A stretch of 39,860 bases of DNA from a virus, in IMG/VR virus record IMGVR_UViG_3300033145_000085, positions 1 to 39,860 of that record. The stretch is one strand, 5' to 3'. Positions within the stretch are counted from its first letter, which is position 1, and every line of letters starts with the position of its first letter. A program made the position numbers and the translations under genes. The notes beneath the pieces were generated by a model. That model did not search any database and was not told where the DNA came from. It saw nothing but the letters and a program-made list of their open reading frames with translations. Below are positions 25,848 through 30,168 of the stretch, piece after piece.

Positions 25848-26887
25848 TAAATCTCCTCCACAGTTACTATTAGCCCTGTAGTAGATGCAATTCCAGTTAC
25901 AACTCCTTTATGAATGTCATCTGATATACTACCACCTCTTTTAACTAAGAATATCCCTTGATACATTACTGCAGCCTTACCTGTAGAAGAACGCCTTAAT
26001 GACATATCCCCAGTAGAAGTATTTACTATTACATAATTTATTCTATCAGCATTGGCAGCCAATATCTCTACAGAAGAAGTACCTATAGTAACTCCTGTAC
26101 TTGTGATTAAATCAGAAGCAGAGCTTTGAGGTCTAACAGGCATAGGTTTAACATCTGATACAGCTCTTACTTTATTAAGGGTATCGTCCCAGTACATATT
26201 AAGAGTTCCAGTTGGTCCAGTAGCAGAAGTATCGTCTTGATATTGAGTACCACCACCGAAAGAAGCATATCCTCCAGTAGAAGTAAGCACTACCATTTTT
26301 AGAGGGAAGTTATCTCCTATGTGGTCTATATCAAATCTCCAACCTCCTTGAGAACCCCCACCAACCATAGTTCCACCAAAACTATTAACTACCTTATTGT
26401 CATCGCCAAGTATTTTTACATATACAGGCTTTTCTTTCTTATATAAAGATGAAGCAAAGGTGTTAAACCTCTGTATAGATGAAGCATTAGCTACCTCTAT
26501 GGCTCTAACTACTGAATTGGTATCTACTACCTTGTTTATAGGAGCAGGAAACTTTATATCACCTAAATTAGATATTGTCATAGAACCAGGGAAATCTACC
26601 TCTGGGATTATAATCTCATCTAAGTTTTTAATACTTACTTCGCTTAATGGCTCTGGGATTTGTAAGTCGTTAAGTATATCCTTTAATTCCTTAACAGCAA
26701 CTACTACATCTTTACTCTCAACAGTAGTATTTACGACAACCTTACGATTAAGTTCATTTGGCAAATCTTCTATCTTATCCATTAAATCAAGCATTACCTC
26801 TACTTTGCCATCTTCCTTTTCCCACTCTTTACGAACTATCTCTCTACGAGCCAGTCTTAGGTTTTTTAATCTTTTAGTTTCTTTCAT
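25847..26887 (-). CDS. Virion structural protein following the portal, unknown function
   Basis: A 346-residue product. The N-terminal 35 residues are very basic (KETKRLKNLRLARREIVRKE), residues 50-110 are helical/repeated (KELKDILNDLQIPEPLSEVS), and the C-terminal half is beta-rich with STG and GGG turns. It shares TAATG with the portal gene upstream and one base with the adhesin gene downstream, so it is likely made with the adhesin; it may be its anchor to the capsid. Confidence 0.55.
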   Translation of the reverse strand: MKETKRLKNLRLARREIVRKEWEKEDGKVEVMLDLMDKIEDLPNELNRKVVVNTTVESKDVVVAVKELKDILNDLQIPEPLSEVSIKNLDEIIIPEVDFPGSMTISNLGDIKFPAPINKVVDTNSVVRAIEVANASSIQRFNTFASSLYKKEKPVYVKILGDDNKVVNSFGGTMVGGGSQGGWRFDIDHIGDNFPLKMVVLTSTGGYASFGGGTQYQDDTSATGPTGTLNMYWDDTLNKVRAVSDVKPMPVRPQSSASDLITSTGVTIGTSSVEILAANADRINYVIVNTSTGDMSLRRSSTGKAAVMYQGIFLVKRGGSISDDIHKGVVTGIASTTGLIVTVEEI

Positions 26888-29800
26888 TATTTATCCTCAC
26901 CAATTAGCTCCCCACCGATAGCATCTTCAACCTTTTTCTTTAAATCAATTAAACCTTCTGATTTAATTTTCTTATTCTTTAGTTCCTGTATAACCTCTGC
27001 TCTTATTTCTTCTTCGCTCTTAGACACTATAGTAGCTGTCTTGTTAGATACAACTGGTAATACAGTACATCTGCAACTTGTGTGTAATGGTGGTGCATCT
27101 ATTGAGCGATAATCTAATTTCATAGGACTTTTAGCTTCACCTAAGAATTGGTCGCCCTTATTAAAGAATTTGACATCTACACTAACAGTTTTTCCGTGCA
27201 TAGGACCACAATAAGAACAGTTATGAACTAATACTCCATTAGCATAATATACATTCTCTTTATCTACTTCTAAGTTATAAACCTTTGTGGTATACTGTAG
27301 TTGATTACTTTTAACATTATTACTCTTATGCATAAGATTAGGAACTGTAGGAGATATAAGACTATTATCAACACTTGTGAGCAATGCGGTGCTACTTTTC
27401 ACCCTTATTTGGGGAAGAAGAAGCAAAGATTTTGCAGTAATAAATGCTATCTGGCTAATAAAGCTGCTAAACTCGTTACTAAAATCTGTCCAGTATGCAA
27501 TAAACCCTTTTCTATCCCTAAGAGTATTGCTCATCGCTATACGGTTTGTTCTCGTAAGTGTCGTACTTCTAATACTCTTTATAAACGCTGTGAGAGATGC
27601 GGTAAGCTCTTTCGTGCCGAAAGACGCCTTAATAGGCATTTCTGTTCTGAGGAATGTAGACGCCCTCCTGTTTTTGTTATATGTAAAACCTGTGGACAAA
27701 GATTTCGCACTACGCCTTCTGGTAATAGACAATTCTGTTCTTTTTCCTGTTTTAGAAAATACAAAGGGGAAACATCTATCGAAAAACTTGTTAGAGAAAG
27801 TCTTACTCGTCTTAAGATTTCGTTTATCCAAGAATACGGGGTTGGTAGATATAGTATTGATTTCGCTATCACTTCTATCAAGATTGCCATTGAGGTTGAT
27901 GGTGCTTTTTGGCATAATCCCATCAAAGACACTCGCAGAGATTCCCTGCTCAGAAAGTATGGTTGGGATACTATCAGAATTACTGAGTTTGAAATTAACA
28001 ATACCATCAATCTTGATGCTCTCATTCTCAACCGTTTGCAAAACATAACCAATCTTTAATTCATCTGCCCTGTGCCATTGATTATTCGCATAGAATGGGT
28101 GATTAGCTGTTGATATAGTTTTACTGATTCCAGCTTTTATGCCTACTAATATTCCATCGTAATCTCTTTGCATAGTCTTTAACACTTTCTGATATCCCTC
28201 AGGTGTTTTTACAGTATCACCGACTTTTATATCTTGTATATTTTTATTGCCTTTAGTTGTTCTTATCTTCGTATTTTTTACAAAACAAACTCTTTCATCT
28301 TCTGCTGTGTACCAAATCTTACTCTCAACTACTCCTGATTGTTTCCAAGCATTTACTTGAGCTTGATTAGATGCAGTTAATACCTCGTTTCTGGCTATCA
28401 TTTCAGCTCTACTGGCTTTCATACCCTTAAACGCTACTTGTACTCTTTTACGGAGCTTTGGTATGCCTTCTCCTAATGCTACACCAGCATTCAACTCTCT
28501 CTCTAATTTAACAATAGTAGTTCTAACAACTCCTTTGCTAAATGTCTTTAAACTTTTATTAAGTTCTGCCTTAAAAGCATTATTGTTTATATCAAATATC
28601 TCTCCACTACCTATAAACGCTAAAGCACCTTGTCCTTCTTCTTTGTATATGTCAGTAACAATAGGATTAAAGGTTGAAATCCATAAACCTATAGCTTTTC
28701 TAATATTCAATAGTTTACTTTTCTTCACAGTCTTAGTAGCTTCTTTGAGGTTAGCCAATACACTTGCTTCCATATAATCAAAGTTATCTATACTTGCTTT
28801 CTTAACCCTGTCATAGTATTTTTCTGCTCTGGCAACCATTTCTTTTTGATATATAGCACCTTTACGCTCAAACTCTATATCTATACCTTTTATTTTACTT
28901 AATACCTTATCCTTTAGTTCTTTTTTAGGTTCGACAATACTCTCTGCTATGCTTGGAGGAGTCGAACCTCTCATCTCATCTCCACCTTCTATGGGTTCTA
29001 AGCCTTTAGTAGCTCTGACTTCATTAACAGTCAGAATACCAGTTTTAACTAACTCAGTATCTTCTTTTAATACCAACTCTCTGTTATCAGGAGTAGGATC
29101 ATCAAAGTCAAAAAATAGATTTTCTGTACCTGGAAACTTAGCTAGATAGAAGTTGTTTAGCACATCTACATAAGCTCTTAACAAAGGTTTAATAGTGTTC
29201 TCTGAGAATACAACAGCTCCAGCTTCAGCATTAGCTCTATTAACATCTTCTGTAATAGCCATAATAGCTTTAGGTACTCTAAAGATAGCCAGTATCTCAT
29301 CTCTGGTCATACGCTTTAGATTAACAAAGTCCATATCTCTGTTAGTAGGTTGTAAGTTCTTTATATCTTTAATAGCTCCCTGCATAAGTGTCATCTTATG
29401 GGAGTTCTGTATTCCTTGATGTTTAGTATTCCATTCAGCTTTAATTCTTTCTGAATCATCAGCATCAAGTGTAGTATTCTCGTCCATAATAATAGCAACA
29501 TCAGGTCGTGCAGAGTTTTCAAAGAAAGTCTGATTCCAAACAGAAGTAGCTAAATTAGAATCAATATCATAAGCAGCAGCTTGAATAGTACCAATACCAA
29601 TAAAAGGGTTTATAGGGTTAAATGTTTTGAAGTGAGTAACCACATCAGTACCGAGCTTAATCCTCTGTCCTTTACCTGTACTGTAGATATATCCAGCAAT
29701 ACTTAGCCCTGATTCACTTGGTACTACCTTAACCCTAGAAGGGTCTAACGATACTAATAAATCCTTATCATCTACATCTTTGATAAATACCCAATAAACA

Positions 29801-30168
29801 TTACCAGATATTTTAATATTACTTGCATAATTAACCTTCAAATCCAAACCACTCATAAAATCATTAGGTTTGTTTAAAAAGTCCAACGCCTTATGTTGGT
29901 CTATCTCTACTCTTTCTGTGCCTGTTTTCCTATACAATCTAACAGGTGTTGAAGAAAAGCTGTCTGCTATTGCATTTATAGCTCCAAAAACAATCCCAGT
30001 ATATCTGTCATTATTCTTAGCACTTGTAGTAGCCTTCCTAAATAAATCGCCTATATTCCCAAAAATAGTTCCTATAGAGCTTTGGTTTCTATAGTCGTCA
30101 TCTCGCCCTTGAAATACCTTAGTTACTTTCTCCCATAAAGTTTTACTCCCTTTATGTTGTTTTTTCAT
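26887..30168 (-). CDS. Portal protein fused to MuF-like domain and interrupted by an intein
   Basis: A 1093-codon frame. Residues 1-400 are an HK97-type portal (YTGIVFGAINAIADSFSSTP; NVYWVFIKDVDDKDLLVSLD; MTRDEILAIFRVPKAIM; DVNRANAEA). Residues 585-627 and 984-1035 form a MuF-like domain: the two halves join as TAEDERV-CSYCGPMHGK and end with HTSCRC. Between them is an intein of 356 residues (628-983). After protein splicing the mature product would be 737 residues. Portal forms the DNA channel; MuF-like domains sit inside the head. An unusual minus-strand linker in the intein is the antisense of a nuclease gene. Confidence 0.9.
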   Translation of the reverse strand: MKKQHKGSKTLWEKVTKVFQGRDDDYRNQSSIGTIFGNIGDLFRKATTSAKNNDRYTGIVFGAINAIADSFSSTPVRLYRKTGTERVEIDQHKALDFLNKPNDFMSGLDLKVNYASNIKISGNVYWVFIKDVDDKDLLVSLDPSRVKVVPSESGLSIAGYIYSTGKGQRIKLGTDVVTHFKTFNPINPFIGIGTIQAAAYDIDSNLATSVWNQTFFENSARPDVAIIMDENTTLDADDSERIKAEWNTKHQGIQNSHKMTLMQGAIKDIKNLQPTNRDMDFVNLKRMTRDEILAIFRVPKAIMAITEDVNRANAEAGAVVFSENTIKPLLRAYVDVLNNFYLAKFPGTENLFFDFDDPTPDNRELVLKEDTELVKTGILTVNEVRATKGLEPIEGGDEMRGSTPPSIAESIVEPKKELKDKVLSKIKGIDIEFERKGAIYQKEMVARAEKYYDRVKKASIDNFDYMEASVLANLKEATKTVKKSKLLNIRKAIGLWISTFNPIVTDIYKEEGQGALAFIGSGEIFDINNNAFKAELNKSLKTFSKGVVRTTIVKLERELNAGVALGEGIPKLRKRVQVAFKGMKASRAEMIARNEVLTASNQAQVNAWKQSGVVESKIWYTAEDERVCFVKNTKIRTTKGNKNIQDIKVGDTVKTPEGYQKVLKTMQRDYDGILVGIKAGISKTISTANHPFYANNQWHRADELKIGYVLQTVENESIKIDGIVNFKLSNSDSIPTILSEQGISASVFDGIMPKSTINLNGNLDRSDSEINTISTNPVFLDKRNLKTSKTFSNKFFDRCFPFVFSKTGKRTELSITRRRSAKSLSTGFTYNKNRRASTFLRTEMPIKASFGTKELTASLTAFIKSIRSTTLTRTNRIAMSNTLRDRKGFIAYWTDFSNEFSSFISQIAFITAKSLLLLPQIRVKSSTALLTSVDNSLISPTVPNLMHKSNNVKSNQLQYTTKVYNLEVDKENVYYANGVLVHNCSYCGPMHGKTVSVDVKFFNKGDQFLGEAKSPMKLDYRSIDAPPLHTSCRCTVLPVVSNKTATIVSKSEEEIRAEVIQELKNKKIKSEGLIDLKKKVEDAIGGELIGEDK
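27288..27296 (+). promoter_or_regulatory. Extended -10 promoter for the intein-nested nuclease gene
   Basis: TGGTATACT on the plus strand matches an extended -10 element (TGn then TATACT). Predicted start of transcription is near 27303, 25 bases before the ATG at 27328. It lies over the intein codons for blocks F/G on the opposite strand. No good -35 is present, as for many extended -10 promoters. Confidence 0.4.
27328..28059 (+). CDS. Zinc-finger Vsr/DUF559-like homing endonuclease encoded antisense within the intein
   Basis: The 243-residue product has four CxxC...C(x3)C zinc knuckles (CEQCGATF...FCSNKC; CPVCNKPF...VCSRKC; CERCGKLF...FCSEEC; CKTCGQRF...FCSFSC) and then a PD-(D/E)XK-type domain: GETSIEKLVRESLTRL with E152, YSIDFAI with D178, IAIEVDGAFWH with E189, D191, W195 and H196, then GWDTIRITEFEI. 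That pattern is of the Vsr/DUF559 group seen in homing endonucleases. ATG at 27328 is taken as start; a TTG at 27301 precedes the predicted transcript, and an AGGAG at 27349 would suit a non-standard ATT start at 27364. All codons lie exactly over intein codons. Confidence 0.85.
   Translation: MHKIRNCRRYKTIINTCEQCGATFHPYLGKKKQRFCSNKCYLANKAAKLVTKICPVCNKPFSIPKSIAHRYTVCSRKCRTSNTLYKRCERCGKLFRAERRLNRHFCSEECRRPPVFVICKTCGQRFRTTPSGNRQFCSFSCFRKYKGETSIEKLVRESLTRLKISFIQEYGVGRYSIDFAITSIKIAIEVDGAFWHNPIKDTRRDSLLRKYGWDTIRITEFEINNTINLDALILNRLQNITNL

What the first reader, a model, noticed from the sequence alone, without database searches (positions are those of the whole stretch)
27220..28287. Homing endonuclease gene encoded on the opposite strand inside an intein
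The portal-MuF gene (minus strand) contains an intein with all splicing residues. In ordinary full-length inteins the endonuclease is a domain in the same frame. Here the linker between the splicing halves is the antisense of a complete zinc-finger/Vsr-like nuclease gene on the plus strand (27328-28059). The nuclease fills almost exactly the space between block B and block F. The same ~240 codons must thus be read as linker in one direction and nuclease in the other. Intein and nuclease would be expressed separately, possibly at different times. I know of no described example; a literature check is needed.
Basis: partly seen in the sequence, partly recalled or inferred. Interest (0 to 1): 0.95.

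Follow-up and report, generated by a model that had tools for sequence, protein, structure and literature searches.

The report
Intein hiding an antisense homing endonuclease
A phage capsid-portal gene carries a self-splicing protein insert (intein) whose middle, read backwards from the other DNA strand, is a complete DNA-cutting 'homing' enzyme gene; the same double-coded design recurs in about a hundred phage loci, including cultured Salmonella, Klebsiella, Pseudomonas and Gordonia phages where the backward gene has gone unannotated.

Summary
The minus-strand portal-MuF gene (26887-30168) holds a continuous 356-residue class-1 intein (27220-28287). Its 229-residue linker is almost entirely the in-register antisense of a plus-strand zinc-finger/EDxHD (I-Bth0305I/Vsr-like) nuclease gene (27328-28059). 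In this register antisense stops arise only from TTA, CTA and TCA; the nuclease has none among 16 Leu and 15 Ser (P about 5e-10 under window codon usage). Thirty distinct viral loci carry this nuclease family antisense in an uninterrupted MuF intein (145 antisense stops expected, 0 observed); split or free-standing homologues use these codons freely (79.5 expected, 95 observed). A second nuclease family (HTH-EDxHD) does the same at another MuF site: 62 of 63 viral loci, all in the same register, and 19 cultured-phage loci. Ten related phages give dN/dS 0.24 for the nuclease frame, 0.67 for the linker frame. Intein-less alleles are precise empty sites. Most likely mechanism: the intein makes the insertion harmless while a separately expressed antisense nuclease drives homing. 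Cleavage, splicing and expression are untested. No description was found in the held literature; Dassa 2009, the key prior paper, could not be read.

The parts
26887..30168 (-). Host gene: portal-MuF fusion precursor, 1093 aa (737 aa after splicing)
   Evidence: ORF and Pfam Phage_portal, Phage_Mu_F; 80% identical intein-less homologue L008
27220..28287 (-). Continuous class-1-type intein, 356 aa, inserted before the first Cys of the MuF CxxC motif (DERV|C...HN|CSYC)
   Evidence: C1, TxxH (TANH), HN and C+1 present; Hint fold predicted, best PDB match gp41-1 intein 6qaz
27982..28287 (-). N-terminal splicing half (intein residues 1-102)
   Evidence: AF2 pLDDT about 76-95; HMM hit 27988-28287
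27220..27294 (-). C-terminal splicing half (intein residues 332-356, ends VHN|C)
   Evidence: AF2 pLDDT 80-92; TIGR01443
27295..27981 (-). Linker, intein residues 103-331: almost entirely antisense of the nuclease, predicted disordered
   Evidence: AF2 pLDDT below 50 over 103-331; no HEN domain in this frame
27328..28059 (+). Antisense homing-endonuclease gene, 243 aa, codons exactly in register with the intein frame
   Evidence: Pfam MTES_1575/DUF559/Vsr; homologues; PDB profile match 3r3p I-Bth0305I 6.7e-15; Foldseek 3r3p
27376..27750 (+). Four successive CxxC...CxxxC zinc-binding-type modules, presumed DNA-binding
   Evidence: Cys columns C17/20/36/40, 54/57/74/78, 88/91/106/110, 119/122/137/141 invariant in A1
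27781..27990 (+). EDxHD/Vsr-like catalytic domain
   Evidence: PF18741 at 161-230 of the 252-aa ORF; invariant E152, D178, E189, D191, W195, H196
27988..28059 (.). Segment where the nuclease C-terminus and the end of the N-terminal intein half are both encoded
   Evidence: N-intein HMM 27988-28287 overlaps the nuclease ORF end 28059

Best explanation
This is a mobile intein whose homing endonuclease is a separate gene on the opposite strand, nested inside the intein. The minus strand gives a portal-MuF precursor with a complete intein: its two Hint halves fold across a long disordered linker and splice themselves out. The plus strand gives a zinc-finger EDxHD homing endonuclease that presumably cuts intein-less MuF alleles at the insertion site, so that repair copies intein plus nuclease as one unit. 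The two frames can coexist because they are codon-in-register: antisense stops come only from TTA, CTA and TCA, so any protein can be recoded synonymously to leave the opposite frame open. Selection conserves the nuclease protein and holds the linker mainly to staying open. SHOWN: both frames and their register; stop-codon avoidance; purifying selection on the nuclease frame (second family); precise empty sites; recurrence. INFERRED: splicing, cleavage specificity, homing, separate expression.
For: Register and open frame. 30 distinct loci of this nuclease family in continuous MuF inteins: 144.9 antisense stops expected from local codon usage, 0 observed, summed log10 P -75.9; split-intein homologues 28.8 expected, 30 observed; other non-nested homologues 50.7 expected, 65 observed. 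All at one site, before the first Cys of the MuF CxxC. Second nuclease family: 62 of 63 nonredundant loci continuous, all register 0; 59 with intact nuclease, 198 stops expected, 0 observed, log10 P -94. Cultured phages show the same. dN/dS 0.24 nuclease vs 0.67 linker in ten related phages, differences 1491/588/2364 at codon positions 1/2/3; in family 1 the closest nested pairs have nuclease identity 0.50-0.60 vs linker 0.21-0.46. Empty sites: L008, 80% identical without intein; Ent3 in Jerseyvirus. I-Bth0305I similarity. Intein halves confident, linker disordered; Hint fold. Register 0 is the only register openable for every protein by synonymous codons.
Against: No expression, splicing or cleavage data. 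The window nuclease lacks an obvious Shine-Dalgarno + ATG, and promoter-like matches are no more frequent than in shuffles. dN/dS was measured for the second nuclease family, not for the window's own gene. Locus probabilities assume independence and local codon usage, and the 'continuous' group is defined partly by the open frame (it is 30 of 33 opposite-strand intein-flanked loci in family 1 and 62 of 63 loci in family 2).
Confidence: 0.88

Rival explanations
1. Ordinary full-length intein with an in-frame (degenerate or novel) endonuclease domain; the plus ORF is a spurious mirror of it.
For: In ordinary contiguous inteins the region between blocks B and F typically holds an in-frame homing endonuclease (PMC9033041).
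Against: No HEN domain in the minus frame of any intein scanned; linker identity is low and it is predicted disordered. The plus frame has conserved Cys modules, EDxHD residues and PDB homologues. Substitutions fall mostly on nuclease third positions. Homologues exist as ordinary plus-strand genes.
Confidence: 0.02
2. A nuclease gene recently inserted antisense by chance, leaving the intein frame accidentally open and no longer functional as an intein.
For: Group I introns can carry antisense HEGs, some degenerate (Porphyra, PMC2585584).
Against: Zero antisense stops across 89 loci (about 343 expected) in contigs of about 32-71% GC. Intein splice residues are kept. In three loci the nuclease is broken but the intein frame stays open.
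Confidence: 0.02
3. Free-standing homing endonuclease lying in a split (trans-splicing) intein locus of the 'fractured gene' type; the open antisense frame is incidental.
For: L055, L062 and L059 really are opposite-strand nuclease plus two separate intein halves. The best fold match of the intein is gp41-1, an intein of the split kind.
Against: In the window and 29 other family-1 loci the N and C halves lie in one uninterrupted frame, kept open against 145 expected stops, whereas the split loci have lost that constraint (30 observed against 28.8 expected).
Confidence: 0.05
4. The antisense nuclease gene mainly regulates the host gene (antisense RNA dampening MuF) rather than driving homing.
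For: Opposite-strand overlap would permit transcriptional interference; free-standing relatives also converge on the 3' end of MuF.
Against: Purifying selection acts on the protein sequence of the nuclease; the intein is present or absent among very similar phages; the family matches homing endonucleases.
Confidence: 0.03

Closest known systems
Full-length (HEN-containing) inteins, e.g. PI-SceI
   Same: Intein Hint halves flank an endonuclease-coding segment at the B-F position; precise empty sites in relatives
   Different: Endonuclease is on the other strand as a separate protein; the in-frame insert is a disordered linker with no nuclease domain
Fractured genes: split inteins with a free-standing Vsr-like HEN gene between the halves (Dassa et al. 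2009, doi 10.1093/nar/gkp095; not held, known to me from memory and citations)
   Same: Vsr/EDxHD-type nuclease gene between intein halves in phages; L055, L062, L059 match this plan
   Different: Here the intein remains one continuous frame read through the antisense of the nuclease, with stop-codon avoidance
Antisense HEGs in group I introns (e.g. Porphyra SSU rDNA S1506, PMC2585584)
   Same: HEG on the strand opposite to the host gene, inside a self-splicing element
   Different: The element there is an RNA intron, so no protein frame must stay open antisense; here nearly every nuclease codon is also a linker codon
EDxHD homing endonuclease I-Bth0305I (PDB 3r3p)
   Same: Catalytic domain matches by profile (6.7e-15) and by fold
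   Different: Different DNA-binding modules (four Cys-rich modules here; HTH-like repeats in the second family)
Putative intein in the capsid morphogenesis protein of Jerseyvirus phages (gp15, PMC8425127)
   Same: Same host gene type and same intein group as the second nuclease family
   Different: The passages found there mention the intein; an opposite-strand nuclease inside it is not mentioned or annotated

Membership tests
Intein (class 1) | Cys/Ser at position 1, TxxH in block B, C-terminal HN followed by C/S/T+1 | tested here: met
   C1, T60..H63, H355-N356, C+1; invariant in 18 inteins
Intein (class 1) | Hint fold | tested here: met
   AF2 halves pLDDT about 90; Foldseek 6qaz gp41-1 intein E 7e-8
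Intein (class 1) | Precise in-frame insertion into an otherwise intact host gene | tested here: met
   L008 80% identical without the 356 aa; DNA junction aligned
Intein (class 1) | Autocatalytic splicing | not testable with these tools
   Needs expression
Full-length intein with in-frame HEN | Endonuclease domain in the same polypeptide as the splicing halves | tested here: not met
   No HEN domain in the minus frame; linker disordered
Fractured gene / split intein with HEN | N- and C-intein halves on separate ORFs | tested here: not met
   One uninterrupted frame in the window and 29 other family-1 loci; met only in L055, L062, L059
Fractured gene / split intein with HEN | HEN is a gene of its own between the intein halves | tested here: met
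   Plus ORF 27328-28059
EDxHD (I-Bth0305I/Vsr-like) homing endonuclease | EDxHD-type catalytic domain | tested here: met
   3r3p 6.7e-15 by profile; Foldseek TMt 0.77; conserved acidic residues and WH
EDxHD (I-Bth0305I/Vsr-like) homing endonuclease | Cleaves the allele lacking the element and promotes homing | not testable with these tools
   Indirect only: presence/absence in very similar phages, one conserved insertion site
Dual-coding (overlapping) gene pair | Both frames constrained | tested here: met
   Nuclease frame dN/dS 0.24 in the second family; intein frame kept stop-free, 0 against about 343 expected over 89 loci

The most novel reading that the evidence does not exclude
A whole, previously unrecognised class of mobile inteins encodes its homing endonuclease on the opposite strand of the intein's own linker, in the single antisense register that synonymous change can always open. 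In the second nuclease family the nuclease start codon and a Shine-Dalgarno-like sequence are read from the antisense of the conserved intein block F (HVYNL). Loss of the open frame would yield split inteins with a nuclease between the halves, giving one route to fractured genes.
Probability: 0.75. Interest if true: 0.93.

Novelty: new variant of a known kind. Interest (0 to 1): 0.9.

Why it matters
It shows two unrelated proteins, a protein-splicing element and its presumed DNA-cutting driver, written on opposite strands of the same roughly 240 codons and maintained over large evolutionary distances in about a hundred loci. It would separate splicing from homing in expression while keeping them linked at the DNA level. 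It offers a testable intermediate between full-length inteins, free-standing homing genes and split inteins. It also explains large 'hypothetical' or 'head morphogenesis' proteins in common cultured phages, where the nuclease has been missed because annotation allowed only one gene per stretch.

Tried and rejected
Searching the minus-strand intein in named phages gave only distant Hint hits. Promoter and terminator scans gave no signal above shuffles. Log-likelihood under window codon usage did not separate the two frames (plus -0.05, minus 0.01 per codon, both well under most window genes); this fits double constraint but proves nothing. Automatic start-codon picking by Shine-Dalgarno was poor and was replaced by reading the block F position. 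A tree of nucleases gives many state changes (10-11) but weak support, so only at least 2 changes are firm. Dassa 2009 could not be fetched. Ten literature searches found no description of an antisense endonuclease in an intein; the 'complementary strand' mentions in two intein papers are only contig orientation.

Full report
OBSERVATION. The minus-strand gene 26887-30168 encodes 1093 aa with portal and MuF domains and an intein. The intein is exactly 27220-28287: Cys1, TANH in block B...VHN|C+1; removing it leaves 737 aa. On the plus strand 27328-28059 (from TTG 27301 at the earliest) is an open frame of 243 codons with MTES_1575, DUF559 and Vsr matches and phage endonuclease PHROGs. The two frames are codon-in-register: each nuclease codon is the reverse complement of one codon of the intein frame. 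In that register antisense stops arise only from TTA, CTA and TCA. The nuclease has 16 Leu and 15 Ser and none of these codons, against 66% (Leu) and 23% (Ser) in window genes: P = 5e-10.

THE PLUS-STRAND PROTEIN. An alignment of six relatives shows four CxxC...CxxxC modules followed by conserved acidic residues and a WH motif. A profile hits PDB 3r3p, the catalytic domain of homing endonuclease I-Bth0305I, at 6.7e-15, then Vsr. The predicted structure's best PDB match is again 3r3p. It is an EDxHD-type homing endonuclease by family; cleavage is inferred.

THE MINUS-STRAND PROTEIN. With 18 intein sequences as alignment, AlphaFold2 gives residues 1-102 and 332-356 high confidence, mostly near 90, and 103-331 below 50 throughout. 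The folded part matches gp41-1 and other inteins. So the antisense of the nuclease is predicted to be a disordered linker inside a complete Hint fold. No in-frame endonuclease domain was seen in the inteins scanned.

RECURRENCE, FAMILY 1. Alignment-based scans found 74 viral loci and 6 loci in bacterial genomes; the two strong matches among the six (L091 Dadabacteria MAG, L092 Streptomyces alboflavus) correspond to viral loci L058 and L065. In 30 distinct loci, window included, the N and C intein halves lie on the opposite strand of the nuclease, in one open frame, always register 0. Expected antisense stops from local codon usage: 144.9; observed: 0; summed log10 P -75.9. Three loci (L055, L062, L059) have the same layout with the intein frame broken, i.e. 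split halves; their nucleases use TTA/CTA/TCA freely (28.8 expected, 30 observed). Eleven homologues without an opposite-strand intein: 50.7 expected, 65 observed. The 30 inteins sit at one place, before the first Cys of the MuF CxxC motif (for L061 the N-terminal Cys lies upstream of the HMM hit). Several free-standing homologues lie tail-to-tail with, or overlapping the 3' end of, an intein-less MuF gene, and the nuclease tree interleaves nested, split and free states (at least two changes are well supported). This suggests that the states interconvert; the direction is not known.

RECURRENCE, FAMILY 2. L002/L019 and L061 carry a second intein in the same MuF gene, again with an antisense nuclease, of a different HTH-EDxHD kind. 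A scan with this family found 498 viral loci; 80 were kept and 63 are nonredundant. Of these, 62 are continuous inteins, all register 0. In 59 the nuclease is intact (198.0 expected stops, 0 observed, log10 P -94.0); in three the nuclease is broken while the intein frame stays open, as the homing-cycle model predicts; the only locus without an intein (L150) has antisense stops. Nineteen cultured-phage loci examined do the same: Gordonia Malisha and Fosterous, Haemophilus Aaphi23, Klebsiella KpTDp1, Vibrio H2 and 1.197.A, Pseudomonas BR313c, Idiomarinaceae 1N2-2, Pantoea AH01, and ten enterobacterial phages of the Guernseyvirinae type including a Jerseyvirus jersey strain. In these records only the MuF/head protein strand is annotated. 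The free-standing Acinetobacter IME285 homologue has 12 antisense-stop codons; one unverified Salmonella record (L125) has a broken plus frame.

SELECTION. Ten Guernseyvirinae-type sequences of equal length: mean dN/dS 0.24 for the nuclease frame against 0.67 for the linker frame; differences at nuclease codon positions 1/2/3 are 1491/588/2364 over pairs. In family 1 the closest nested pairs have nuclease identity of 0.50-0.60 against linker identity of 0.21-0.46. So the nuclease is the constrained sequence and the linker is held mainly to staying open.

WHY THIS REGISTER. No amino acid forces an antisense stop in register 0, so any protein can be recoded synonymously to open the opposite frame; in the other two registers certain dipeptides make stops unavoidable. 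This can explain why every continuous case is register 0. In family 2 a His precedes the conserved block F VYNL in 35 of 61 loci but 0 of 29 in family 1; read antisense, His gives ATG or GTG, and the Asn-Leu-Glu/Gln codons give a GAGGTT Shine-Dalgarno-like sequence. The window (family 1) lacks this, and its nuclease start is unresolved.

MOBILITY. L008 is an 80% identical portal-MuF gene without the intein, and the DNA aligns across the junction. In Guernseyvirinae-type phages, 58 of 406 records matching the gene cover at least 80% of it, while many of the listed rest align in two pieces over about 56%, i.e. without the intein; Ent3 shows the empty site. These are the patterns expected of a homing element; transfer itself was not tested.

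NOVELTY. Each part is known: inteins, EDxHD nucleases (PMC3943268), split inteins with a nuclease gene between the halves (fractured genes; Dassa 2009 known to me from memory and citations, not held), and antisense HEGs in RNA introns (PMC2585584). The intein in Jerseyvirus capsid protein had been noted (PMC8425127). I found no description of a complete antisense endonuclease inside a continuous intein in ten searches. Because the main prior paper could not be read and subscription journals are missing, I call it a new variant of a known kind, with high interest.

LIMITS. No experiment. Probabilities treat loci as independent and use local codon usage. The continuous group is defined partly by the open frame, although it makes up 30 of 33 opposite-strand intein-flanked family-1 loci and 62 of 63 family-2 loci. 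dN/dS comes from family 2. Promoter evidence is absent.

Noticed in passing
L019/L002 and L061 (two inteins in one MuF gene): Two adjacent inteins in the same MuF gene, each with its own antisense EDxHD-type nuclease of a different DNA-binding kind (zinc modules; HTH).
   Followed up: yes
L024, L034, L038, L041, L050, L056, L058, L068: Free-standing relatives of the window nuclease lie on the opposite strand next to or overlapping the 3' end of an intein-less MuF gene, like free-standing homing endonucleases.
   Followed up: partly
L073:2975-5790 +: The only same-strand case: N-intein and nuclease form one ORF that ends in a stop, followed by a separate C-intein ORF.
   Followed up: partly
L141, L145, L169: Antisense nuclease frame broken while the intein frame remains open, as expected for decay after fixation in the homing cycle.
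   Followed up: partly
L101, L102, L103 (Mycobacterium phages Camster, Fishburne, Seagreen): A related Vsr-type nuclease lies antisense between two pieces of a DNA methyltransferase gene with no intein seen; in Camster and Fishburne the annotated CDS there is on the opposite strand, in Seagreen the endonuclease is annotated.
   Followed up: partly
L099:1477-4122 -: Second-family antisense nuclease in an intein of a host gene that is not recognisably MuF (looks like a prohead protease region by eye; Pfam gave only the intein domain).
   Followed up: no
L154:1-4350 -: A nested intein frame in a long ORF whose Pfam match is an alpha/beta hydrolase, an unusual host gene or a chance long frame.
   Followed up: no
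L065/L092: The arrangement occurs on a contig of Streptomyces alboflavus NRRL B-2373, probably a prophage.
   Followed up: no
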